From: Synechococcus sp. KORDI-52
GTDB lineage: Bacteria; Cyanobacteriota; Cyanobacteriia; PCC-6307; Cyanobiaceae
Reading direction: 5' to 3'
NCBI RefSeq assembly: GCF_000737595.1
Contig: NZ_CP006271.1
Coordinates: 992,001 to 1,056,000 of the forward strand
Length of the DNA stretch: 64,000 bases
Below the pieces are notes generated by a model. That model was given only the letters and a program-made list of their open reading frames with translations, was not told where the DNA came from and searched no databases. The position numbers and the translations under genes were made by a program. Below are positions 10,496 through 40,553 of this stretch, piece after piece. Within the stretch, counting starts at the first letter, position 1. Every line of letters begins with the position of its first letter.

Positions 10496-12142
<1,647 letters not shown>

Positions 12143-12221: not shown

Positions 12222-12362
12222 TGCAACCCACGCGTCTTGTAAGGTCTAGATTCTGCAAGACATGTGACCAGCGAGGGCCAGCGTCAGTTGCAGGGCATGA
12301 AGCATTTGAGGTGCAGGCGTGCAGCGGCTAGGGTCTTGTTGTGTATTGTTGAGTCGGGACAA

Positions 12363-12719
12363 ATGCCCCAGCGCCCCGGTGCTTTTGCTGCTCAGTTCGC
12401 CCCTGAGACGCTGCAGCGTTTTAAAGCTCTCTGTCGACAGCAGGACAAGGCTTATTCCAAGGTGTTGGAGCGTCTTGCTTTGCTGTACGTCGAAACGGAG
12501 GGAGGAATTCTTTCAACAGCCGGCTCTGCCGGACCTCCATTGAAAGGCGCCCAAAAAAGGCAAGTCCAGGTTGAATCTCTGCAAAACAAGTTGTTGGAAG
12601 ATCTGTTGAAGCGGGTTGAGATCCTCGAAAAGAAGGAAACAAAAACGTTGTACGAATTAGATCGACTTCACAAGGACCTTGCCTTTTTCACGTCAGGATT
12701 AAAAGAGCCAGAATCTTGA
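12363..12719 (+). CDS. Small unknown protein: RHH-like N-terminus plus coiled coil
   Basis: Not recognised as a named family. A 118-aa product starts MPQRPGAFAAQFAPETLQRF. Residues ~10-48 (FAPETLQRFKALCRQQDKAYS and VLERLALLYVETEG) have the spacing of a strand followed by two helices, like ribbon-helix-helix DNA-binding proteins; this is an inference. The C-terminal half, with QNKLLEDLLKRVEILEKKE, has heptad-like Leu/Ile spacing suggesting a coiled coil. The frame is open to 12264, but upstream residues look non-coding. It sits at the junction between the groESL terminator and the AT-rich island, and base composition begins to drop within it. Confidence 0.6.
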   Translation: MPQRPGAFAAQFAPETLQRFKALCRQQDKAYSKVLERLALLYVETEGGILSTAGSAGPPLKGAQKRQVQVESLQNKLLEDLLKRVEILEKKETKTLYELDRLHKDLAFFTSGLKEPES

Positions 12720-12770
12720 TCAGGTCAATTCTCAATGCTTAGCAGTTTCACATTGCTTGAATGCAATGGT

Positions 12771-14159
12771 TCATTTTTTTAACGTCAACATTTGTATGAT
12801 CATGTCGATGACGATTTGAGTATTGATGCTGTAGCTGATAAGTCCAGATCCAGCCTTCTGGACTTGTGTATTATTTGCGAACAAATTTCCTACATCTTTA
12901 ACAAGAGATTTGTCAACTAGTTTAACGGAAGTATTGTTAATGCCCGTCGGGAAAACGCAATGCTTCTCATTGGAATGCAGAATCCCTGGCTTTCTGCAAA
13001 AACGATGCGGAACAAGTTGCCCGGCACCTGCATTCGCAATGAAAAAATCGATAAATTGGCATTGTTGGATTTTTTCTCGGTAGGTTTGACCCACCAAGCT
13101 CACAATTGAAATATTTGAATAAGGCAATAATTTCTCTCGAATAGAATCGACCACTTCAAGATCTTGGCAGACTGGTGTCGCTTTGCTTCCACGAAGGGGA
13201 ATTTGACTTGAATTTTCGTATTCGGTAAAGCCGTCAATCAAGAAGACAAATGAATCAAAGTATGGTGTTAGTTGTTCTACGAGTGCTGGGAGAAAGTCTT
13301 CTTGTTCGACCCATATTCTTTTCTGGCCTGAGATTCCAAACCAGAGAGTTAAGGTTTTGTTGCCTCCAGCTAAAGACCTCAATTTTTTGACAACTTTCCC
13401 CCAGATTCTGGTCGCTAACTTTCCTCGGCATTCATTATATACGGCGTTTTCCATCTCTTCAGTATATTGATCTAACTTCATTCCCAGTTGATTGGATCCA
13501 ATAATGGTAGGAAAGACTGTAATTCTAGCGATATCTTTGGTTCTAGGGTGGATTTTTTTGCTTAAGCATTTAGGGCTGAAGAAAGATTTTTTGCTTAAAA
13601 TCGGCTTTTTGTCTTGTAGGTAAATAAACCATTTTAGCTGGTCATAAAAGTGATGATATGGCCTTAATTGATCGAGCAAATAGCCGCCCATTATTGCTTT
13701 TTGGGGCTCAGGTTGTTTTGAACTTTTTTTAATTTCATTCCGCATGATATTTCGTAATGGGTTGAGTATTGTTTCGTCGCTTATTGAAGATTTGTGCTTT
13801 CCTGAAAATGTGGTCGAAAAAATAGCATCTACAAATGAAGTGCATTGACACAATATCCATTTGTTTTTTCCTTTTGAGTCATAAAAGAAGATGAAATTGC
13901 ACATTCCTTTTCTTATGCTTTTGGACGCAAATGTTTCCAGGCTTTCCATAAAAGGGTGTGGCATGCAAAAAGTGCCTTCTTGCTTGTATATCGGCTCTAT
14001 GATGTCGACAAGTGTTTTGAGGTCGCGTTTTTCGATTGAGTTGATAATCTTTATCCATAATGGATTGCAGACTTTTTGAGCAAGAGAACTGGGTAGTTTT
14101 TTTGATGGAATGTTGAACTTGTTTTTGGTCGGCTTCTTAGGCTCTTGATTCTTTCGCAC
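12771..14159 (-). CDS. Large unknown protein, possibly a glycosyltransferase
   Basis: A 462-aa protein in strongly AT-rich DNA, Lys/Ile/Phe-rich unlike its neighbours. No family is certain. The C-terminal third alternates hydrophobic strands and loops (FVFLIDGFTEY, ISIVSLVGQTYREKIQQCQF and IDFFIANAGAGQLVPHRFCR, then PGILHSNEKH). This resembles the nucleotide-sugar-binding half of GT-B-type or GT61-like glycosyltransferases, where a Gly-rich turn precedes HR/H residues. The N-terminal half has no recognised motif. There is no signal peptide or clear membrane segment. With the two sulfotransferase-like neighbours it suggests cell-surface glycan modification, by context only. Confidence 0.55.
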   Translation of the reverse strand: MRKNQEPKKPTKNKFNIPSKKLPSSLAQKVCNPLWIKIINSIEKRDLKTLVDIIEPIYKQEGTFCMPHPFMESLETFASKSIRKGMCNFIFFYDSKGKNKWILCQCTSFVDAIFSTTFSGKHKSSISDETILNPLRNIMRNEIKKSSKQPEPQKAIMGGYLLDQLRPYHHFYDQLKWFIYLQDKKPILSKKSFFSPKCLSKKIHPRTKDIARITVFPTIIGSNQLGMKLDQYTEEMENAVYNECRGKLATRIWGKVVKKLRSLAGGNKTLTLWFGISGQKRIWVEQEDFLPALVEQLTPYFDSFVFLIDGFTEYENSSQIPLRGSKATPVCQDLEVVDSIREKLLPYSNISIVSLVGQTYREKIQQCQFIDFFIANAGAGQLVPHRFCRKPGILHSNEKHCVFPTGINNTSVKLVDKSLVKDVGNLFANNTQVQKAGSGLISYSINTQIVIDMIIQMLTLKK

Positions 14160-14429
14160 TTGGCTTGTTTGTTTGCATCCTGGTATTCTACATGCCTCTA
14201 TGCATGTTCAAAGCATATGTTGTTTTCAAGCATAGAGTAAGTAGAGCATGCGCTCAAGTTCTTATGGAAATTTAGTGGTATTTGGCACATATTTTTCGTC
14301 TAAGTAGTTGCTTTGGACGAGAGCTGCGACAAGATTTCTTGGCATGGATTCATGCCGAACAACCCTCTCTCTTGCTTTGCTTTGTAACATCAAGCGTGTT
14401 TAATTGATGTTTCTGAATGATTTTTGATG

Positions 14430-15596
14430 TTATGGCTTTCCACTAGCGAGTTGTGCCTTTGCTCGCTCCAGAAGTTTGGCTAATTTTTGCCCTTGGGGCC
14501 GATTTTCTTTAGCCACGTCCAGCAATTCTACCTCTGTGACTTTTGACACTTTCCCGGATTGGCTTAATGCAATGATGGCATCGACAGTTTCGTTTGAGAG
14601 TTTACGCTTTGACTCATGGGTGAATGCTTGAAGCAGTTCATCTCCGATGAGTTGCAAGGATATAGCTTCTTCTTGGCGAATTCTGTGAGCTTGCTCTGGA
14701 TTGATAAGTTGTGATTTGGGTTCTTTGAGGGTTGCGATCGAAGTTAGTTGTTCGTTTGGATCGAGACTTGCATTGATGATTTTTAGAAAGCTATCATTTT
14801 TTTCGTAAATTTTTTCAAGCTGCTGCTTGTTGATTTTGCATTGCTTCGCTTCGATTTTTGGTTGACTTTTGATCAATGCATCTGAAATCCTTGTGCTAAT
14901 CCATGGGTATTTGTTGTAGTATAGAGCATTGATAATGATTAGGATCTCAAGTTCTTTCCCGCTAAGACTCCGGTTGATGATGGCTTCTGAAACCTGATCT
15001 TCTGGATAGAGTTTTTCGGCACCGATCAATTTGAAAATTAATTTTGAAATATCTCGTTTATGCTGGGAGTAGTTAATGATTGTATTTGAAATGTTCGCTT
15101 GAGACATTAGTGAGATGATCTCGGCGGCTTTTTCGTGATGGGATGAGATAAAATGTCTTGCGCGAATAAATTGCTCTAACGGCATTGAATCGCCGTGCCG
15201 CTTGACGCGTTGTTGGTATTCAGAAGACAGCATCTCCTCGATCTCTCGTACTGCCAGGATGATATGCAAATCAATATACTTTTCCCAGTTGCTTTTGTTC
15301 TGGATCAGCTCTGGGACTAACCAAAATAGTGATTCTGAGCTCAGGATTGTTTTTGATTGATCGTGATTGCTTTCGCCAATCGCGATCAATTGATCACTCA
15401 GGCTCGCCTCAGGATTCGGCTGCCAATTCCCAGATGTGATTTCGAGGCGCGATGCTCGATCTCGTAGCGACGGATCAATGGGATAACTTATCCCTTGCTT
15501 GTTTAAATCGTCTGATGCGATTGCTAGTGAAGATTGAATGGCTGAAGTGCCCGTTTTTCCGTGGCCAATGTGCAGGAAAAGTTTTGTTTTCTTCAC
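14430..15596 (-). CDS. Sulfotransferase-like protein (PAPS-binding fold)
   Basis: A 388-aa protein. The N-terminal FLHIGHGKTGTSAIQSSLA (residues 7-25) is a 5'-phosphosulfate-binding loop of the type seen in PAPS-dependent sulfotransferases (consensus hhHhGxxKtGTTxhQ). A later segment, LHIILAVREIEEMLSSEYQQ, has the Arg-x6-Ser arrangement that binds the 3'-phosphate of PAPS. The C-terminal ~150 residues are Lys/Gln-rich helices with no match. It is AT-rich relative to the core and divergent from the second sulfotransferase-like gene, with a 129-bp gap. The acceptor is unknown; surface polysaccharide is the usual guess. Confidence 0.7.
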   Translation of the reverse strand: MKKTKLFLHIGHGKTGTSAIQSSLAIASDDLNKQGISYPIDPSLRDRASRLEITSGNWQPNPEASLSDQLIAIGESNHDQSKTILSSESLFWLVPELIQNKSNWEKYIDLHIILAVREIEEMLSSEYQQRVKRHGDSMPLEQFIRARHFISSHHEKAAEIISLMSQANISNTIINYSQHKRDISKLIFKLIGAEKLYPEDQVSEAIINRSLSGKELEILIIINALYYNKYPWISTRISDALIKSQPKIEAKQCKINKQQLEKIYEKNDSFLKIINASLDPNEQLTSIATLKEPKSQLINPEQAHRIRQEEAISLQLIGDELLQAFTHESKRKLSNETVDAIIALSQSGKVSKVTEVELLDVAKENRPQGQKLAKLLERAKAQLASGKP

Positions 15597-15725
15597 TGCA
15601 CTCCCTGATGATCCAGTGACTTTACCATTATTTCTGCCATTGGCCTATGCATGCTGCAGCGAAAACTTTAGCCGTCGCATGAAGTCACTATCCTGATCTA
15701 GTCTTAGGGGAGGTGGTCAGTTCCG

Positions 15726-16847
15726 ATGTTTAGGCGGTCCCGAAGGCTTGTCATCCACATTGGAGCTCAGAAGTGTGCGTCTTCTTCGCTGCAAGCTTCC
15801 CTTGAGCTTGTTGCAAAGGCGGCAAAAGGTCGCTTTTGCTTTTGTCATCTACAGTCCGAGCTGCTTCGGGGTGTCAACCAAGCCTTGGAAGATAAGGATG
15901 GTGAACCCTTTGGATATATTGACGGTGTTCTTTCCACTCAGGATGCTTATCAGGTTGTTGTTAGCCATGAAATGATGGGCAATCGTCCAAAATTGGTGTG
16001 TGCAATTGCGGGTCGCGCTTTAGAGAAACATTCTTTTAATCATGTGGTGATATCGGGTTACTCAAGGTTGCAGTCTAGTTATTATATTTCTGAATTCTCT
16101 CAATGGGGGTTTAGAGGCAGAGCAAAGCTATATGCCGATATGGAAGCCATGTTGGCACATAATTTAGATTGGCGAAAGTTTACAGCTCTTGAGCGCAGCC
16201 TTTTAGCTTTTTCTCTTGAGGGAAATGACCGAGATTGGTTCGCTGACTATCAAGGCTTTTGTCGAGCTTCAGAACTTTTTGGGGAATCTGTCAGTGTAGT
16301 GAGTTGTCATATTCCAACTCGCCATCATCCCTATTCATTGTTGAATCATTTCATGTCTTCCTGTGGCCTGTCTTTTGGTCTCAGCGATCTAGAGTCATTG
16401 GATGTTCGTGAAAATCTTTCGTTTCAGCCCCTGTTGATTCATGCAATCTCCAGTCATCTGTGCGCATTGCGGCCATGGCGGCAGTCGTTTTTCCCTAGGC
16501 CCCACGCAGGAAATCAATGGCTCTTTTCCATTGGCAAGCGTATGGCTGGTGCGAAGAATATGTTGCTTGAATTCAATAAGTTATTTTCTTGTGATCTCCA
16601 GCGAGCTTTGGTTGGTCACCTTGACTGCCGATCGTCTGAGAGTAATAAAAAATACTGTGATCTGATGTCTGTAAATTTTAATTACTTTCAGCCTTCGGAG
16701 GGCGCGTCGTTGTTGTCAAAATCGGAATTGTTGTCGCTTGCGAGGCAAACCACTCAGGATCGAGATCTTGAAGACATAAAGCATCTCAATCGCAGGATCG
16801 AAGACGCTTGCATGCAGAGTATTCAAGCTGAAATTGAGTGTTCTTAA
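15726..16847 (+). CDS. Second sulfotransferase-like protein
   Basis: A 373-aa protein. The N-terminal RLVIHIGAQKCASSSLQASL matches the 5'-phosphosulfate-binding loop (hHIGxxKxxSSSLQ). A later stretch, HVVISGYSRLQSSYYISEF, is placed where the 3'-phosphate-binding Arg/Ser motif usually lies. It shares only this fold-level pattern with the neighbour at 14430-15596, so they are not recent duplicates. The start ATG follows GGGGAGGTGGTCAGTTCCG, a purine-rich stretch about 10 nt upstream. It ends 10 bp from the convergent secG stop, marking the right edge of the island. Confidence 0.65.
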   Translation: MFRRSRRLVIHIGAQKCASSSLQASLELVAKAAKGRFCFCHLQSELLRGVNQALEDKDGEPFGYIDGVLSTQDAYQVVVSHEMMGNRPKLVCAIAGRALEKHSFNHVVISGYSRLQSSYYISEFSQWGFRGRAKLYADMEAMLAHNLDWRKFTALERSLLAFSLEGNDRDWFADYQGFCRASELFGESVSVVSCHIPTRHHPYSLLNHFMSSCGLSFGLSDLESLDVRENLSFQPLLIHAISSHLCALRPWRQSFFPRPHAGNQWLFSIGKRMAGAKNMLLEFNKLFSCDLQRALVGHLDCRSSESNKKYCDLMSVNFNYFQPSEGASLLSKSELLSLARQTTQDRDLEDIKHLNRRIEDACMQSIQAEIECS

Positions 16848-16857
16848 TTTGATTCTT

Positions 16858-17088
16858 CTAGGCCAACCAGCCAGCACTCAGGATCACGGCTAAAGACAGG
16901 AAGAGAGCCAGGCACGTCCATGTCAGTCGATTCAATGTTGCTTCTGCACTGCTGGCGCTGCTGAACATCGAGCTGCCGCTGGCGGCCAATCCACCCATGC
17001 CATCACCCTTGGGGCTGTGCAACAACACCAAGATGATCAGCAGGATGCCTGTGCCAATCCAGCTCCAGGACAGAATTGAGGTCAGCAT
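16858..17088 (-). CDS. secG: Protein-export membrane protein SecG
   Basis: Small SecYEG translocon subunit (76 aa) with two transmembrane helices (WIGTGILLIILVLLHSPKGDG and LTWTCLALFLSLAVILSAGW) around a Gly/Ser-rich cytoplasmic loop, GGLAASGSSMFSSASSAEATLNR. The LLHSPKGDGMGG signature is typical of cyanobacterial SecG. The start codon overlaps the last base of the gpmI stop, so it is probably read from the same transcript. Confidence 0.93.
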   Translation of the reverse strand: MLTSILSWSWIGTGILLIILVLLHSPKGDGMGGLAASGSSMFSSASSAEATLNRLTWTCLALFLSLAVILSAGWLA

Positions 17089-18725
17089 CAGACGGAAAGA
17101 GGCAAGCGAGCGGTCATGGGGGTGGGGTCCATGTTGGAGATTGGAGCGATCAGACTGACACCAGTCATCGCCTCCGGCTGCGGCAGATCAAGAATCTGAA
17201 GCAAGGTTGGTGCGATATCAGCCAGCCCTCCGTTTTCACGCAGCGTGATTCCGTTGCCGTGGCCAGGCAACTTGCGCCGCTCCCCCTCGATCAGGATCAC
17301 AGGCACCGGATTGGTGGTGTGGGCTGTCCAGGCCTGGCCATCCGGACCCTGCATCAACTCTGCATTGCCGTGATCGGCCGTGATCAACATGGTTCCTCCC
17401 TGGCGTCCTACGGCATCCAGCAAGCGGCCAATGCAGCGGTCAACCGTCTGGATGGCTTCCATCGCGGCATCCATCACACCGGTGTGACCAACCATATCGG
17501 GATTGGCGTAGTTGATCACAATCAGCGCATAGTCTGCTTTTCCGATAGCTGCGATGCAGCTGTCGGTGAGTTGCTCGGCAGACATCGCCGGTGAGAGGTC
17601 ATAGGTGGCGACCCTCGGTGACGGCACAAGGTGGCGCTCTTCCCCCTCCAGTGGCTGTTCGATGCCCCCATTCATGAAGTAGGTGACATGGGGATACTTC
17701 TCCGTCTCTGCTGTGCGGTACTGCTTCAGCCCCGCGTCGGCCACCACCTGGCCCAGCAGTTGATCGAGCGGCTCTGGAGGGAAGGCGACCTGGACGGGCA
17801 GGTCCTGTTCCACCTGGGTGAAGGTCACCACGTCCAATGTCGGAACGTGGCTGCGCTTGAACGCCTCGAAGTCTGCAAGGCACAGCGCTTGCACAATCTG
17901 GCGGGCACGATCCGGTCGGAAGTTGAACACCAGAACACTGTCGCCGTCCTTGATCACGCCGTTCTGCAGGCGGACCGGTTCGAGGAACTCGTCGGTGATT
18001 CCCTCGGCATAACTGGCCGCCAGCACCTGCTCGGGCGTTCGGTTGTCCACCGCGATGGCAGGGTCGGTGTAGAGGTTGTAGGCCTTCTGGGTTCGCTCCC
18101 AGCGCTGGTCTCGATCCATGGCCCAGTACCGGCCGCAGAGGCTGGTGAGCTGGCCCACGCCGCATTGGTTCAAGGCGGCTTCCACCTGGCTGATGTAGCT
18201 CGGTGCGCTTTGGGTGGGGGTGTCGCGGCCGTCGGTAATGGCATGGACGGCGAGATCGGAGATGCCGCTGTCGGCAGCCCAGCGGATCAGTCCACAGAGG
18301 TGGTCCACATGGCTGTGAACACCGCCGTCGGAACAGAGGCCCAGCAGGTGCAGTGTTCCTCCCCGCTTCTGGATCCGTTCCGCCAGTGACGTCAGCACGG
18401 GCATGTCCCCCAGCTGGTTGCTGCGTACGGTGTCGCTGATCCTCACCAGCTCCTGGCGGATGATCCGGCCCGCACCGATGGTCAGGTGACCGACCTCGGA
18501 ATTGCCCATCTGCTGATCGGGCAGCCCCACATGGGATCCGCTGGCCTCAATCAGCGTGTGTGGATAGGCATGCCACAGGGCATCCATCACCGGTGTTCCG
18601 CTTTGCTGAATGGCGTTGTGCTCGCTTGCGTCCCGATGCCCCCACCCATCCAGGATGGTAAGGACCACAGGTGCCACTGAGCCGGAGCGACCTGAACCGT
18701 TGGTTGTGTTTTTCCCCACGTTCAC
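17088..18725 (-). CDS. gpmI: 2,3-bisphosphoglycerate-independent phosphoglycerate mutase
   Basis: Interconverts 3- and 2-phosphoglycerate in glycolysis. The protein is 545 aa, a little longer than typical. The alkaline-phosphatase-fold metal site is visible: [13 protein letters not shown], then the catalytic Ser in [37 protein letters not shown]-like (here [12 protein letters not shown]), [14 protein letters not shown] and [12 protein letters not shown], with [10 protein letters not shown] near the end. It shares an overlap with secG downstream and is divergent from pyrR. Confidence 0.96.
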
Positions 18726-26251: not shown

Positions 26252-26295
26252 CGCAAGGTTTGAAGCTCGTAAACGCAGTTCCAACAGGGAAAGTG

Positions 26296-35529: not shown

Positions 35530-36977
35530 GGTGATCCTCCAGAAGGGATGTCTTCGGCCTAGCGGTGGGGATGCATGGGGCTCAGGGACGCAAGCTTTCG
35601 TGCGGATTTGCTGACAATAAACTTCAGATCATTGCCAATCGCTCTCCAGTACTGTCGGGATAGCGAGGTTGGAGCTGAAGCTCCGCCTTGTCCAAGGTTT
35701 GGCTGTGACCCTGCTCCAGTCCCAAAAGCCGAAGTTCTGAGGGGCTGTCTTTGTCATTGGAGGAGGTGTCGATCCATCCATGGCAGTCGTCTTGGAGAAG
35801 AAACTCTGCTGATTGGTTCAGGACATCCATGCGTCGCGGGGGAGCTTGCCGAAGAAGCGTGTGGGGGTAATTGAGGTCACACCCAGATGGAGCAACATCA
35901 GTCGCCGCAGCTTGACTCTGCCGATCCCTTGGTGATGTGCTTCAGCCCACCAGTTGTTTGTTGGCCTTGGCCTTGGTCAGGGCAGATCGCAGGGGTTGAT
36001 TCTGGTGCCATCGGGTAGAGGTCACGGTTGCTGTGGCGGCGATGATGATGACGTCTTCTGACCACCAAATCTTTCAAATGATATTGATGCAATTGATTTT
36101 TTTGGTAAAAAGAATCGCATGGTGAAAACTGTCCTAGCCTGAGGTTGATGGGCGGAGTCATGCCATCTTCAAAATTTCAACGGTGAATACATCATCCACT
36201 TGTATTTGTAGGTATCCGCGAAAAGAATTGGAGAGCTGAAGCACCGGCTTGGTTGTCTCTTCAGGGCATGGGAGGACGTCAAAGTGGTCTACTCCACCAT
36301 TGATCTGAAACTTAAAAAGCAGTCAGCAAGTGTGTTTGCCGTTCTTTCAAGGCTTTTTATTTTTTTATCAAAAATCTACAGCTATTTCTAGGCATATTTA
36401 GTTGTAAAGCGGCTTCAATGTCAGCCCCGTCTTTTGTCTCGGGGTGTCGTTGACGGTTTCTTCTGTTCCCCTTTTGTTTGTAGGTAGACACTTTTTGCTG
36501 CGAGAGTTGGGATTGTTCTCGTTTAGACAAGAAACCCAATGGGGTAGTGGATGCATCTCCAGGGCTCGGTTTTAGCTCTCGGATCACACCACATCCCGAA
36601 GAAACCCACCTACGCTGCTAAAGGTGATCCGGCGATCAGGACCAAATTCAGCATCACGAGTCGGCGAAGCTGTCCTTGGCGAGCCTTTATATTTTCATCG
36701 AAATGAGTTCAAGTCGCATCCCCAAAAAGGACGAGACGATGACCTCCATGCGCTCCTCCAGGAGACGGTCCAGCAACAGATGTTCACTGAATATTCCCCT
36801 TGCTGTTGCACAGCCACAGCTAATCATGGCTTCAACAGCGCAGGGTCGTTTGCTTTTAGGGCAGTCATCTGTTCTCCGGCCAGAAACAGAGCAACGCGGG
36901 TGTTTTGAGCTACGGGTTGGTCGTGACTGCCTTGAATAATCTCCTTTTGTGGGCTCGAACAAATGCTGCTTCCATTG
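35530..36977. other. Low-coding accessory stretch
   Basis: No convincing gene in ~1.45 kb. Short open frames on the minus strand at 35624-35830 (MDVLNQSAEFLLQDDCHG...), 36357-36587 and 36687-36962, and on the plus strand at 36624-36908, lack ribosome binding sites, recognisable domains or biased codon use. Some may be remnants or lineage-specific peptides. Base composition varies, with AT-rich patches near 36050-36120 and 36340-36420. No repeats or tRNA remnant were noticed. Confidence 0.5.
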
Positions 36978-37355
36978 TCAGCTCCCCCCTGCGCAGCCGT
37001 TCCATTCGTTACAGGGTCTTTCCCAGAACACTCTCAGCTGCCCCCTTGGTGATTTGAAGACAAGTCCACCTTCATCGGCAACGCGCTCGTAGCTTTTGCC
37101 ATCCTGTTCAGAAGCGAAGAAGTAATCGACGCTGCCGCGATAAACCCTGACATTGCCTTGTCGTTGGCTGAAGCCGCACGGCTTCAGTTCAGTCGGTGGG
37201 AACCCATTCTCCTGGGTGAAACACCAAACATCAGCAGTGTCGGCTTGTGCTGGTGTAACCAGGGCACCGATGGCGATGGTGGTGGCGGTAAGTGTGGTGC
37301 GAATCGCTGCTTTGGCTCCCCTGATGGACATGGGCAGTTCGAGTTTAGAAATCAT
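36978..37355 (-). CDS. Small secreted Cys-containing unknown protein
   Basis: A 125-aa precursor with an N-terminal signal peptide (AAIRTTLTATTIAIGALVTPAQA, cleavage after AQA near residue 38). The mature ~87 residues, DTADVWCFTQENGFPPTELK, PCGFSQRQGNVRVYRGSVDYF and RVFWERPCNEWNGCAGGS, contain four Cys that could form two disulfides. No family was recognised. The start may instead be ATG 37331 (MSIRGAK). It stands alone in an accessory stretch, and a small membrane-protein-like ORF lies upstream on the same strand. Confidence 0.6.
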   Translation of the reverse strand: MISKLELPMSIRGAKAAIRTTLTATTIAIGALVTPAQADTADVWCFTQENGFPPTELKPCGFSQRQGNVRVYRGSVDYFFASEQDGKSYERVADEGGLVFKSPRGQLRVFWERPCNEWNGCAGGS

Positions 37356-37379
37356 GTTCAGTTTTTACTTGAAGTAAAT

Positions 37380-37739
37380 TTAGGCATAAGCTAGTGATGA
37401 ACAGCTAGAAAAACCAGCCTCCAGGTCCGAAAAGGCCCCCACAGGTTGCAATCCGAGATGAATCAGCGCGGTTGCCACAACAAGAGCTGCCAGAGACGTG
37501 ATAGTGGCTGGAAAATATTTTCTTTTTTGCTTGAAGTGCGCCCATGGATGCTTGCAGATCAGGCAAGAAATCGGGGCGGCCCAAAGGACCAGGGGCGTTA
37601 GAGGATTGTTTTTTCGCCAATGGTTGGACCAGTCCACATTAAACCCATAATTAACTTGTATAAAATTTTCTTTGGTATATCGATGTTGTTTGACCGTCTT
37701 AACACGTTGCTGAGGAAGATGTTGTTTGCATGAGGGCAA
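37380..37739 (-). CDS. Possible small membrane protein
   Basis: An open frame of 119 codons, possibly shorter if a start near VDWSNHWRKNNPLTPLVLW is used. Two hydrophobic stretches (NPLTPLVLWAAPISCLIC and ATITSLAALVVATALIHLG) suggest membrane insertion. The N-terminal 35 residues look random and may be untranslated. No family was recognised and there is no clear ribosome binding site, so coding status is doubtful. It lies 24 bp upstream of the secreted-protein gene on the same strand. Confidence 0.35.
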   Translation of the reverse strand: MPSCKQHLPQQRVKTVKQHRYTKENFIQVNYGFNVDWSNHWRKNNPLTPLVLWAAPISCLICKHPWAHFKQKRKYFPATITSLAALVVATALIHLGLQPVGAFSDLEAGFSSCSSLAYA

Positions 37740-38405
37740 TGTTGTTCTGAAAAAAATCAGATCCCACCTTTACCGGTTGATCAAGTGCTTTGGTTTTGTT
37801 TTTCCGCCGGAAACGCAGTTTTCTGGTCATTGTTCGCAGCGTTGCGTCTTGTGCCTCCAGGCTCACTGCTACGGCCTGATGGAGTGCAGGACTCAGCCAG
37901 ATCCAGGCTTCGACGGTTTCAGGTCCAGGCAGGCAATAAAAAAGGAAAGGGCCCTCAGCCCACCCCTCTTGGGGTCGACGCATTGAAGGAACAACTTTTC
38001 TTCTCCCAAATCTGCCTCAGAGGCCGCCTCGCTTCTGTGTATTCCGCACCAAATTAGGCATTTCAGCCTAGTGGGCATTCTTTCCGGATCCCTGATGATT
38101 CACAGGGCGCGAGCACCACTTCAAACGCTTTGGGAGCTGGAATGATCGCGGGTTCCCTAGCCCGCTTCTCCCTCAACATCTGATTAGAGATATGCGCCTC
38201 GCCATCCTTCGCCAGGGTTGCTGAGAGCGACCATCGCTTCCGAGTCGGAGGAGCCGACCACCTCGATGTCAACTGAACGTTGATTACGTCTGAACCATCT
38301 GCTCAGCCCTTGGGAATCGAAGGCTTTTGAGAGGATGGTTGCAGCTCTGCCTCAAGGCCCCAGGCCGTCAAAATCCGGTTTCGGCGATAGAGCTGCTGAT
38401 GCCCG
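37740..38405. other. No supported gene
   Basis: Only short overlapping frames on both strands (for example 37699-37983 minus and 38063-38272 minus), with Arg/Ser/Pro-rich translations typical of non-coding GC-rich DNA. No hairpin with a T-tract and no known RNA gene was recognised. Confidence 0.5.
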
Positions 38406-38654
38406 CTAGACCTCTGCTGCCTTGCACCAGGCAGGGTTTTTCAGCAGTGTCCAGCCCTGCCTTTGGAGTGACTGCCACAACTGGTCGGCAGCTTCTTTGC
38501 CGAGGTAGCGGCGTTCTTTGAGCAGCGGTGGGCCATCGGGCATGGTCCGCCCCCGATCCGCGAAGACCTTTGGGTCACGGATCCATGCCTTCTCGTCGCG
38601 GTGGAAGCGCCAGATCCAGTAGTTGTCGCGGTCGATCAGCCAGCCTTCGCGCAT
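38406..38654 (-). CDS. DUF1651 family protein
   Basis: An 82-aa protein. MREGWLIDRDNYWIWRFHRD, EKAWIRDPKVFADRGRTMPD and ERRYLGKEAADQLWQSLQRQGW match DUF1651, a small family expanded in marine Synechococcus and Prochlorococcus, of unknown function. The Trp-rich GWLIDxxxxWxxRFHRD core is its hallmark. TTG 38657 and ATG 38654 are adjacent; the ATG is used. Members often lie in variable regions, as here, and are reported as multi-copy within genomes. Confidence 0.8.
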   Translation of the reverse strand: MREGWLIDRDNYWIWRFHRDEKAWIRDPKVFADRGRTMPDGPPLLKERRYLGKEAADQLWQSLQRQGWTLLKNPAWCKAAEV

Positions 38655-39222
38655 CAACCATCAAGCAAGTACGCCCGTACTAGCGACGGGTGTGGTGGCG
38701 CTGCAATGCTGTCGCCTGAAGAAAACCTGTGGAAGTGTGCCACCACCCACCAGCTGCTGGCCATGGTGATGGTGTGGGTCTGGCAGGGAAACCGGCCGCC
38801 ACGCGGGGATCGAGGCCTAACGGACTCTCCCCAACCCTGAGGGGGATCGAGGACCACCTGGACTCTCCCCCACAGCATTCACTGTCGAATCAGCCGCAAA
38901 TATCGTTTGATTCCGATGACTTGCCTCTGTTTCTGGTTTTCAGTACTCCGGAAGTGATCTGCGTGAGTGAAATGACGTGAGTTATTGATCTGCATCCTCG
39001 TGTGGACAGTTTTGGCTTCACGTTCCGTGCGATCTGGTGCCAAGGTCATTGCCCTGTCCCTGCTGAGACACGTTGTCCAGGCAGGGACGGGGCAGTACAG
39101 GCGTTGTTGGGTAAGGGTGCAGACATTTTTGATATGAGTGTTCATGCTTCGAACCAGCACAAGCCTGATTTGATGTGAGAAATGGATTGGGAGTTTTTGA
39201 TTTTAGTTATTGGGTCTTGGTC
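38655..39222. other. Gene-poor stretch with one doubtful small ORF
   Basis: A plus-strand frame at 38706-38840 would encode 44 aa (MLSPEENLWKCATTHQLLAM, VMVWVWQGNRPPRGDRGL), partly hydrophobic, but without a clear ribosome binding site. The rest shows no gene. The imperfect direct repeat at 38805-38871 overlaps the end of that frame. Composition becomes AT-rich after 38900 towards the TauE/SafE gene. Confidence 0.4.
38805..38871. repeat. Imperfect direct repeat, two copies
   Basis: GGGGATCGAGG, 6 nt, GGACTCTCCCC (38805-38832) is repeated as GGGGGATCGAGG, 7 nt, GGACTCTCCCCC (38841-38871). Each unit has C-rich and G-rich ends that can also pair across the junction (CTCCCC with GGGGGA). Confidence 0.6.
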
Positions 39223-40017
39223 TTAGTTTCCAATTATCATCACAATAAGTTCGATGCTGACTACTGCTATTAAAAGGAAATAAATCCACTTTTTAATCCA
39301 AGGTTGTAGGGCAACTTTTGCTGCCCACCATGACCCTAAAGCGCCTCCAGCGGCTAATGTGATGCCAGGTACCCAGTCAATCTTGCCTTCTAAAAAGAAG
39401 ATGGGGATGGAGAGTATTGAAGCCGTCAGCAGAAATACTGCCTTTATGGGATTTGCTTCGGTAACATCCATGGAGCCAAGCATCACCAATGCAAGAATCA
39501 TGTATGTGGCGGAGTCTAAGACTATGAATCCAGTCCAAAAGCCCACCAGGAAAAGTGCTGGAAGTATGAAGCGACTTTCTTTGTCTTGACGAGATTCTTT
39601 TAAAAAAATAAATCTCTTTGATCCAATGACAAGAATGGCCAATGCGGTAAATATTGCGATATTGATCACAAGCTGTATTCTGTCGTCATTCAGATATGTT
39701 GCAGCTCTGGCCCCTAGGATTGCTCCTGTCGCGAGAGGCGCCGACAGTACGAGGGTTTTTCTCCAAGGTATAGATTTTGCTTTTTGAAAGCTGATTACAG
39801 CTGAGAAAGATCCGAGTAAAACGCCAAGTCGATTCGTCCCGTTGGCGATGCCGGGCGGCACTCCCAGTAAAATCAGAAGAGGAAGCGTTATCGCTGATCC
39901 GCTGCTGGCAAGGGTGTTGAGGGCTCCTGCAAATGCTCCACCTATGAGAAGCATTGGTATCTCCCATGCGTTCATTCCCTGTCTCCAGATGTTCAGTAGA
40001 CCTTCTGGTAGCAACAT
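39223..40017 (-). CDS. TauE/SafE-family membrane transporter
   Basis: A 264-aa protein with about eight hydrophobic helices. The family repeat shows as GGAFAGALNTLASSGSAITL then LLGVPPGIANGTNRLGVLLG in the first half, and LVGFWTGFIVLDSATYMILA plus AAGGALGSWWAAKVALQPWI in the second. The family exports or imports sulfite, sulfonates or other organic anions; the substrate here is unknown. The DNA is AT-rich compared with the core, in line with the surrounding accessory stretch. No sulfur-metabolism genes are adjacent. A start at 39975 (MNAWEIPM) is possible. Confidence 0.82.
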   Translation of the reverse strand: MLLPEGLLNIWRQGMNAWEIPMLLIGGAFAGALNTLASSGSAITLPLLILLGVPPGIANGTNRLGVLLGSFSAVISFQKAKSIPWRKTLVLSAPLATGAILGARAATYLNDDRIQLVINIAIFTALAILVIGSKRFIFLKESRQDKESRFILPALFLVGFWTGFIVLDSATYMILALVMLGSMDVTEANPIKAVFLLTASILSIPIFFLEGKIDWVPGITLAAGGALGSWWAAKVALQPWIKKWIYFLLIAVVSIELIVMIIGN

Positions 40018-40394
40018 TTGGTCGCGCGCGACAATGAATTTAACTTTTTGAATCTTATGAGGTTTGTGCGCTCAGTCAGGTGATTGGTCTGTGCTCTTGG
40101 TGTGATGTTGAATTTGAAGAATATCTCTGTAGATGCTTCGGGCCTGCTCAGCACCAAATGCGTCAGATTCGTCGTTTCGACGTGTTGCAATCAGTCCTCT
40201 CGGCAGGAACGCAATGCGGTAGTTGCCGGTCATGGGTTCAGATATTTCTGAGATGAGGGTTCCCTACTTCTCTCAGGCGAAAAAACAGATTGCCTTTAAA
40301 GCCTGGGTTACATCACTCCTTGCTCTTTCAGTGGGCGAGCATTGATGAGATTTGTTCTGATGCTTCGATGAGAGTTTTGTTGCTTCAGACCGTC
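40018..40394. other. No supported gene
   Basis: Short frames only, such as 39993-40190 on the minus strand and a 37-codon plus-strand frame at 40232-40345, none with a ribosome binding site or recognisable domain. Presumably holds the promoter of the TauE/SafE gene. Confidence 0.45.
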
Positions 40395-40553
40395 TCAGCT
40401 TTGTTCACGAGCTTTTTTGGCTGCGAGCCCGGCTTCCACTGATGTGCCAGCAGCGAGGGCGACGGGTCCAAGTAAGCCAATCAATTGGTTTTGGATGTCT
40501 CCGGCGCCCTGTGCTCCTTCTCCAAGCACTGCACCAAGGACAAACCAGGTCAT
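40395..40553 (-). CDS. Possible 52-aa small membrane protein
   Basis: A minus-strand frame translates as MTWFVLGAVLGEGAQGAGDI, QNQLIGLLGPVALAAGTSVE, AGLAAKKAREQS. It has two weakly hydrophobic, Gly/Ala-rich segments and a basic C-terminus, more protein-like than overlapping frames. The frame remains open upstream to about 40620 without an ATG (preceding residues RRWKAYWITCALA), so a longer form with an unusual start cannot be excluded. No family was recognised. Confidence 0.4.
   Translation of the reverse strand: MTWFVLGAVLGEGAQGAGDIQNQLIGLLGPVALAAGTSVEAGLAAKKAREQS

What the first reader, a model, noticed from the sequence alone, without database searches (positions are those of the whole stretch)
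12720..16856. AT-rich island with two sulfotransferase-like genes and a glycosyltransferase-like gene between groEL and secG
Seen: about 4.1 kb of clearly AT-rich DNA with Lys/Ile-rich proteins sits between GC-rich core genes. Two proteins carry PAPS-loop-like N-termini (HIGHGKTGTSAIQ and HIGAQKCASSSLQ), and the third has a GT-B-like C-terminal half. Known: such loops mark PAPS-dependent sulfotransferases. Inference: a horizontally acquired cassette that sulfates or extends a surface glycan, possibly for phage or grazer avoidance.
Basis: partly seen in the sequence, partly recalled or inferred. Interest (0 to 1): 0.6.

Follow-up and report, generated by a model that had tools for sequence, protein, structure and literature searches.

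The report
Sulfotransferase swap site in marine Synechococcus
Between two housekeeping genes of a marine cyanobacterium lies a small AT-rich slot that, across the genus, has been emptied and filled with different enzymes of the kind that add sulfate groups, probably to cell-surface sugars.

Summary
In detail: window 12720-16857 is AT-rich (GC .36-.47 against about .58-.67 nearby) and holds three genes of low GC3. C (14430-15596) is a PAPS-type sulfotransferase (ST) by motifs and a profile match to solved STs. D (15726-16847) is very probably one, by motifs and a moderate-confidence model. B (12771-14159) could not be shown to be a GT-B glycosyltransferase; only the glycan-cluster context of distant relatives supports a glycan role.

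The larger point lies outside the coordinates. Of 34 genomes of the genus, 28 could be read at groEL-secG (3 only in part): 24 are occupied, 4 empty. All 24 carry an ST-like gene, from seven sequence groups (one weak). Of 40 stretches from other genera, 38 keep groEL near secG-gpmI; none of the 40 holds these ST groups. Slot content clashes with the core tree, though it is not random on it; close relatives differ by the whole cargo; the four empty gaps are homologous, and three keep part of D's 3' end. So this looks like a replacement-type island dominated by STs and exchanged between lineages, not a recent import into one strain. Phage or grazer avoidance is untested.

The parts
10508..12142 (+). 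groEL, left conserved flank
   Evidence: ORF; 95-100% identical protein in the genus stretches; within reach of secG-gpmI in 38 of 40 stretches from other genera
12264..12719 (+). U151: small conserved ORF at the left edge of the slot, taken as a resident rather than cargo; weak match to phage-protein family phrog_5354 (E 6.3e-4). Its start is uncertain; the part shared by the orthologues begins near MPQRPGAF
   Evidence: in 15 genus intervals, the 4 empty ones included
12771..14159 (-). B, 462 aa, fold unknown; glycan-related by the context of distant relatives; in 7 genomes of the genus, each time next to C
14430..15596 (-). C, 388 aa, PAPS-type sulfotransferase (loop HIGHGKTGT; R117-x7-S125)
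15597..15725 (.). 129-base stretch between the divergent genes C and D; 98-153 bases in the 10 genomes where both were found
15726..16847 (+). D, 373 aa, very probably a sulfotransferase (loop HIGAQKC; R114-x7-S122)
16858..17088 (-). secG, right conserved flank (coordinates read by eye and the frame)
17088..18725 (-). gpmI, anchor used for the synteny survey

Best explanation
The groEL-secG interval is a small replacement-type genomic island of this marine Synechococcus genus whose cargo is mostly sulfotransferases. Shown here: the position is fixed, the cargo differs between close relatives, most of the cargo is ST-like and much of the rest is of glycan-modifying type, and the slot has been emptied by deletion. 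Inferred: whole cargo blocks are exchanged by homologous recombination in the highly conserved flanks (groEL/U151 on one side, secG/gpmI on the other), without a recombinase in this strain. Inferred function: C and D use PAPS, made through the host's APS kinase, to sulfate sugars of an exported glycan (O-antigen, capsule or exopolysaccharide); B helps to build or modify that glycan. Swapping the cargo would change the sulfation and charge of the cell surface and so what phages, grazers or other surface-binding agents recognise; this last step is conjecture.
For: ST identity of C: a 21-row alignment keeps H9, G11-T17, Q21, S86, E88 and R117 unchanged and S125 in at least 90%; its profile matches SULT-type structures 7d1x (E 1.5e-5) and 7eov (1.7e-5) over the R...S region. 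ST identity of D: K16, R114, Y119 and S122 invariant in 13 rows; the model aligns with sulfotransferase 3rnl (Z 10.0, 210 residues) and human 3-OST-3 1t8t (Z 9.9, 218 residues), out to residue 322-323. Slot: 24 of 28 readable intervals occupied, each with an ST-like gene; 0 of 40 stretches from other genera hold any of the seven ST groups, 38 of them with groEL in reach. Exchange: haplotype I (B+C) as one clade on the core tree rejected, p-AU 2.2e-62; the core clade G006/G015/G027/G008 rejected on the C tree, p 1.6e-7, and G005+G009, p 1.2e-4; G028 and G033, 96-97% identical in the flanks, differ by the whole cargo, with edges at the end of U151 and of secG. Loss: the 4 empty gaps align with each other over 266-416 bases (71-83%), and 3 of 4 match D's 3' end (best E 4e-12). 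PAPS: APS kinase in 28 of 34 genomes and 19 of 19 complete ones, the window's own included. Glycan context: 2 of 3 relatives of C in other genera of the family lie beside glycosyltransferases (third not scanned); other slots hold GT61, GT2/92-type, methyltransferase and GSCFA genes.
Against: Slot type is not random on the core tree: 6 changes, reached by only 2 of 200 shuffles, so part of the pattern is inherited. No export, polymerisation or sugar-nucleotide gene lies in the window's interval. D has no Pfam, NCBIfam or PDB sequence match, P-loop kinases tie with STs in Z, and its profile does not match CL0 well (12.9%). CL0, the largest ST-like group, has no Pfam ST match in the 4 of 17 members scanned and rests on its loop motif and a 96.9% profile match to C. 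Of 12 comparisons of D 3' ends with the empty gaps, only 5 beat all 300 shuffles. Recombination tracts in the flanks were not demonstrated. There are no phage, grazing or chemical data.
Confidence: 0.66

Rival explanations
1. Vertically inherited accessory genes of an AT-rich locus: C and D are ancestral in the genus and were lost many times, with little or no exchange between lineages; low GC reflects weak selection on codon use.
For: C at the same place in 15 of 28 readable genomes and D-type genes in 13 intervals; GC low in the slot of 23 of 24 occupied genomes, those of low genomic GC included; slot types cluster on the core tree more than shuffles do; a decaying D copy in G014 (E 1.5e-6) and weaker traces in G029 and G003 (E .007 and .021); most of the C tree is unresolved.
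Against: The C tree rejects two core clades; homologous empty sites lie among filled relatives; ST groups that do not cluster with C or D hold the same slot in other lineages.
Confidence: 0.2
2. The STs act on something other than a surface glycan: a sulfated small metabolite, lipid or secreted protein.
For: ST superfamily members with such acceptors are known (recalled); no polysaccharide export gene was seen in the window's interval.
Against: Two relatives of C in other genera sit beside glycosyltransferases, one of them also near a nucleotidyltransferase and a sugar-dehydratase-type gene; a relative of B sits beside UDP-glucose dehydrogenase and a GT2/RgpF protein. D's model aligns well with a 3-O-sulfotransferase, though a fold alone shows no substrate.
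Confidence: 0.2
3. An integrase-borne mobile element (tycheposon- or satellite-like) made the slot, and the STs are its cargo.
For: G014 has a phage-type integrase and a resolvase in the interval, and G016 has a blastp relative of that integrase beside U151; contig L083 has an integrase arm-binding domain next to a cut-short B; U151 weakly resembles a phage protein family.
Against: In the other 22 occupied genomes no frame of 90 aa or more that was scanned or clustered looks like a recombinase (G019_1 was not scanned; G023_1 matched nothing); the only tRNA in the window lies at 26293; no match of B, C or D in 50,697 phage records.
Confidence: 0.08

Closest known systems
Replacement-type flexible genomic islands of aquatic bacteria (Alteromonas, PMC4119200, passages seen)
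   Same: Same location in many genomes, different genes of similar assigned function, surface-related content, exchange by homologous recombination proposed
   Different: Smaller than most islands in the table rows seen there (7-74 kb): 0.9-7.2 kb in all but one of the occupied intervals with both ends seen. Dominated by sulfotransferases rather than a whole glycan cluster, and it can be empty
Marine Synechococcus genomic islands (Dufresne 2008, PMC2441476, passages seen)
   Same: Atypical composition, flanked by homologous core genes in several strains, glycan genes prominent, grazer and phage avoidance suggested there too
   Different: The main text holds neither 'sulfotransferase' nor 'groEL'; its supplementary island table was not read and may list this interval
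XssA and XssE sulfotransferases of the synechan cluster of Synechocystis PCC 6803 (PMC8205485, passages seen)
   Same: Cyanobacterial STs of distinct subfamilies that belong to an exopolysaccharide pathway
   Different: There the STs lie inside a nearly complete Wzx/Wzy cluster on a plasmid; here they stand apart from any export or polymerisation gene; no direct sequence comparison was made
Sulfotransferase in a hypervariable region of SAR11 (HVR4, PMC2217521, passages seen)
   Same: An ST gene in a variable region of a marine bacterium
   Different: One ST in a table of mixed genes; different organism and place
Cytosolic sulfotransferases (PDB 7d1x, 7eov) and human 3-O-sulfotransferase 3 (1t8t)
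   Same: R-x7-S region in sequence (C); fold over about 215 residues (D)
   Different: Distant in sequence (about 10% identity for D); substrates unknown

Membership tests
PAPS-dependent sulfotransferase superfamily (gene C) | 5'-phosphosulfate-binding loop with conserved Lys (definition recalled) | tested here: met
   H9 and G11-T17 invariant in 21 rows
PAPS-dependent sulfotransferase superfamily (gene C) | 3'-phosphate-binding Arg and Ser, eight apart (definition recalled; alignment to 7d1x seen) | tested here: met
   R117 invariant, S125 at least 90%; aligned to VIYLIRNPRDVLVSGYH of 7d1x
PAPS-dependent sulfotransferase superfamily (gene C) | Sequence-profile relation to known STs | tested here: met
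   7d1x E 1.5e-5, 7eov E 1.7e-5; single members stay under the Pfam cut-off (C; best 18.7 of 22 bits among 9 homologues)
PAPS-dependent sulfotransferase superfamily (gene C) | ST fold | not tested
   The two structure jobs went to B and D
PAPS-dependent sulfotransferase superfamily (gene C) | PAPS binding and sulfate transfer | not testable with these tools
   Needs protein and assay
PAPS-dependent sulfotransferase superfamily (gene D) | Loop Lys and R-x7-S | tested here: met
   K16, R114, S122 invariant in 13 rows
PAPS-dependent sulfotransferase superfamily (gene D) | ST fold | tested here: inconclusive
   STs Z 9.9-10.0 over 210-218 residues; designed P-loop proteins and kinases reach Z 8-11.4 over 128-180 residues; Foldseek gave no match at E <= 0.001; four of five models under pLDDT 60
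PAPS-dependent sulfotransferase superfamily (gene D) | Sequence relation to curated ST families | tested here: inconclusive
   No Pfam, NCBIfam or PDB match of use; profile match to C over the loop only, 80%, 1.4e-5
GT-B glycosyltransferase (gene B) | Two Rossmann-like domains, or a match to a GT family | tested here: inconclusive
   No family match; model pLDDT 37 from 3 sequences; no structural match of Z 8 or more
Replacement-type flexible genomic island | Same position, different content, similar function | tested here: met
   24 of 28 readable intervals occupied, all with ST-like genes of seven groups
Replacement-type flexible genomic island | Exchange by homologous recombination in the flanks | tested here: inconclusive
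   Discordant trees and sharp edges, but no recombinant tract shown in the flanks
Integrase-borne, tRNA-linked island (tycheposon-like; definition recalled) | Recombinase gene and tRNA at the site in this genome | tested here: not met
   No recombinase match for U151, B, C or D; only tRNA of the window at 26293

The most novel reading that the evidence does not exclude
One chromosomal address in marine Synechococcus works as a sulfation-type locus: different sulfotransferase families are deleted and re-imported there as a block through conserved flanks, so that close relatives present differently sulfated surface glycans, a sulfate-based counterpart of O-antigen switching driven by phages or grazers.
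Probability: 0.35. Interest if true: 0.68.

Novelty: new variant of a known kind. Interest (0 to 1): 0.52.

Why it matters
Island glycan genes of marine Synechococcus have long been suspected of a part in grazer and phage avoidance (stated in PMC2441476, passages), but islands are mostly large and mixed. Here is a small, fixed slot of nearly one function, with related genomes that differ in slot content (G028/G033 and G010/G020, flanks 95-97% identical; G005/G009 and G006/G015, flanks about 90%, apart from a 74.5% block in the former that takes in C, D, secG and gpmI). That makes the question whether glycan sulfation sets phage host range directly testable, and the homologous empty sites give a handle on losses and gains.

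Tried and rejected
Sequence-only look-ups of B, C and D gave nothing usable in Pfam, NCBIfam or PDB, and in PHROGs only weak matches to families of unknown function. Profiles against PDB helped only for C. The fold of B failed for lack of relatives (3 sequences, pLDDT 37), and its structural matches are not used. Viral origin: no relatives of B or D found in viral contigs, two of C and three of CL0, all 24-31% identical or very short, none of B, C or D in phage records. Plasmids were not searched. The idea that the empty sites are untouched ancestral sites was dropped because of the shared gap sequence and the D relic. A protein-level search for D relics in the empty sites found none; the DNA comparison did, for 3 of 4. 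In one search, 5 of 12 comparisons beat all 300 shuffles (G001 and G031 with the D of G010 and G000, G020 with that of G010); none did for G033 or with the D of G005. The shuffled control was made from the four empty intervals only, so it does not cover the weak traces in G003 and G029. An RNA-family scan of the window found only the tRNA.

Rows left out: A4 holds 15 of 17 CL0 frames (two fragments of one interrupted G027 gene dropped). A5 holds the window's C plus 20 of the 23 further frames (L087 for unknown residues, L103 overlong, L102 weak; a 51-residue match to a CL0 gene in L089 not counted). A6 holds 5 of 7 D frames (two with unknown residues). Of 34 genomes, 6 could not be read at the slot: G004, G011 and G022 without a gpmI match, G017 with a partial one at a contig end and not fetched, G002 and G030 cut by contig ends. 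In G016, G019 and G025 the slot was read without its groEL side. A4 and the ST profiles were built from slot members, so counts of strong matches in the slot (16 of 20 for CL0 at E < 1e-50) favour the slot. The 40 stretches from other genera are 40 of the 81 such genomes with gpmI, chosen by me mainly for long contigs. One search looked only for these ST groups and B, so other STs there are not excluded.
Full report
Observation. The stretch is real and lies where stated. GC is .356-.472 in the 500-base windows that start from 12500 to 16500, and GC3 of the three genes is .40-.44 against .75-.78 for atpD, groES, groEL and gpmI and .62 for pyrR. Three long frames fill it: B 12771-14159 (-), C 14430-15596 (-), D 15726-16847 (+). 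To the left lies a 151-aa ORF (U151, 12264-12719, GC about .50), to the right secG and gpmI. dN/dS between orthologues is .054-.126 (C, 6 pairs).084-.203 (D, 5 pairs) and .085-.235 (B, 4 pairs), so all three are under purifying selection (NG86, most dS values saturated).

What C is. Single-sequence searches found nothing of use. A scan of bacterial and archaeal genomes brought 21 loci: 7 of Synechococcus type (one of them labelled proteobacterium), 13 of alphaproteobacteria, mostly Rhodobacterales, and one Alteromonas (the orders are recalled). In a 21-row alignment H9, G11-T17, Q21, S86, E88, R117 and L211 are invariant and S125 is kept in at least 90%. The profile matches 7d1x (E 1.5e-5) and 7eov (E 1.7e-5), both sulfotransferases, over the R...S region. 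The names of the two PAPS motifs and their spacing in SULTs are recalled.

What D is. In 13 rows G13, K16, R114, Y119 and S122 are unchanged; R114 and S122 are eight apart, as are R117 and S125 in C. Sequence searches are blank or chance-level. Profile comparison gives 80% with C over the loop only and 12.9% with CL0. The best of five AlphaFold models (5 sequences, pLDDT 72.9, pTM .65; the others 54.7-59.0) has no Foldseek match at E <= 0.001. The structural aligner gives sulfotransferase 3rnl Z 10.0 over 210 residues, human 3-OST-3 1t8t Z 9.9 over 218 and Teg12 Z 8.1 over 202-217, each out to residue 319-323; designed P-loop proteins and kinases score alike or higher (up to 11.4) but their alignments end by residue 264. 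D is very probably an ST, not proven.

What B is. No family, no credible solved relative, unusable model. Its C-terminal half has distant relatives in frames of 489-609 codons in 8 of 300 genomes of the family, four of them genomes of this genus that also have B. In G003 that relative lies near UDP-glucose dehydrogenase and an epimerase and beside a protein with GT2 and RgpF domains; in G191 a relative lies beside a protein with GT1-type domains. A glycan role is likely; GT-B is unverified.

The slot. With gpmI as anchor, 31 of 34 genomes of the genus have a match. 28 could be read at groEL-secG, three of them (G016, G019, G025) without the groEL side. 24 are occupied; G001, G020, G031 and G033 hold only U151. 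Of 99 frames of 90 aa or more, 15 are U151 and 54 are ST-like: CL0 17 (two are fragments of one gene), C 15, D 13, CL5 4 (two are fragments), CL6 3, and the single frames G016_9 and G013_1. That is 54 of 84 without U151, or 54 of 73 if 11 frames of G014 and G016 (the mobile-type genes and those on the groEL side of U151) are also set aside. Evidence for the ST label differs: over a Pfam cut-off for CL5 (2 members scanned, 22.4 and 33.2 bits against 22), CL6 (2 members) and G016_9; PDB profile match for C; 96.9% profile match to C and the loop motif for CL0, which has no Pfam ST match in the 4 members scanned; motif and model for D; under cut-off for G013_1 (24.1 against 27 bits). Each of the 24 occupied slots has at least one such gene: C in 15; D in G024, G025 and G032, where no C was seen (the G025 contig ends beside D); CL5 in G007; CL6 in G021, G023 and G026; one each in G013 and G016. 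Other cargo includes GT61, GT2/92-type, methyltransferase, GSCFA and GT2 genes. Slot GC is .26-.46 in 23 of 24 and .63 in G026, against .49-.66 for gpmI, so low GC is a lasting property here, not a sign of recent import.

Other genera. Of 40 stretches from other genera of the family (40 of the 81 such genomes with gpmI), 38 have groEL within reach of secG-gpmI. There the interval is 75-809 bases in 23 of 38 and otherwise holds frames not related to the cargo of this genus; none of the 40 contains a member of the seven ST groups or B. Relatives of C and D do exist in a few genomes of other genera; in the stretches fetched around them no groEL, secG or gpmI was found.

Exchange and loss. On a core tree of atpD, groEL and gpmI (30 genomes, 8 with under half of the columns) haplotype I (B+C), haplotype II (C without B) and empty need 6 changes where 2 is the least. 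Shuffled labels need 8.9 on average and as few as 6 in only 2 of 200, so slot type is partly inherited. Haplotype I as one clade is rejected at p-AU 2.2e-62. On the C tree the core clade G006/G015/G027/G008 is rejected at 1.6e-7 and G005+G009 at 1.2e-4; 10 of 12 inner branches of that tree are unresolved and two rows have long branches. G028 and G033, sisters on the core tree, align at 96-97% up to the end of U151 and again from the end of secG, and differ by the whole cargo, about 5.9 kb against 0.28 kb. The four empty gaps align with each other over 266-416 bases (71-83%, E down to 2e-79), and three of them match 85-110 bases of cargo-bearing genomes that take in the last part of D and the short spacer to secG (best E 4e-12). 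With the last 150 bases of D alone, 5 of 12 comparisons beat all 300 shuffles. The empty sites are therefore deletion products of one homologous kind. Since their bearers lie among filled relatives, either the slot was refilled, most clearly in G028, or an empty allele was itself transferred; repeated deletion at the same bases is the less likely way out. In G014 a decaying D lies between C and secG (E 1.5e-6); the traces in G029 and G003 are weak (E .007.021).

How it may work. PAPS: APS kinase is found in 28 of 34 genomes and in 19 of 19 complete ones. Glycan: relatives of C in G228 and G242 lie beside proteins with GT2 and GT1 domains and, in G242, within some 5 kb of a nucleotidyltransferase and a sugar-dehydratase-type gene; the neighbours in G152 were not scanned. 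The best reading is that C and D sulfate an exported surface glycan and that B serves the same glycan. The step to phage or grazer avoidance is conjecture, in line with what Dufresne 2008 suggests for island glycan genes (passages) and with LPS as a cyanophage receptor in other cyanobacteria (PMC4390846, passages).

What is known. Replacement islands are described for Alteromonas (PMC4119200, passages); islands with glycosyltransferases for Synechococcus (PMC2441476, passages); polysaccharide STs for Synechocystis (PMC8205485, passages); an ST in a SAR11 hypervariable region (PMC2217521, passages). A 2020 study of picocyanobacterial islands (PMC7522525, passages) holds neither 'sulfotransferase' nor 'groEL' in its main text. 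The listings of searches show no title on an ST slot at groEL-secG; some were capped (15 of 22, 15 of 28), only open-access papers are held, and no supplement was read.

Verdict. A small replacement-type island dominated by sulfotransferases, with recognisable empty sites: a new variant of a known kind.

Noticed in passing
window 36000-40500: A second low-GC patch (.47-.54 in 1500-base windows) with few convincing frames: a TauE/SafE permease at 39223-40017 (-) and a 125-aa ORF at 36978-37355 (-) that by eye has a signal-like start and matches no Pfam family; between them only frames under 120 aa and no Rfam match.
   Followed up: partly
L083 2769-3683: A contig labelled uncultured proteobacterium carries secG, D and C of Synechococcus type and a B gene cut short beside an integrase arm-binding domain: a binning error or chimera, or an element inserted in B.
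   Followed up: partly
L059 535-7610 (G014) and L073 6494-7831 (G016): Integrase and resolvase genes in the G014 slot and an integrase relative in G016, next to U151, suggest that mobile elements also use this position; G014 also has a 419-aa protein with a match to DruA far under cut-off.
   Followed up: partly
window 12264-12719: U151, a small conserved protein of unknown function with a weak phage-family match, marks the left edge of the slot in 15 genus genomes; a 121-aa frame that looks alike by eye follows groEL in another genus (L168).
   Followed up: no
L147 7779-9548 (G003): A protein of about 590 aa related to B's C-terminal half lies in a sugar-nucleotide and glycosyltransferase cluster and matches no Pfam family.
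   Followed up: partly
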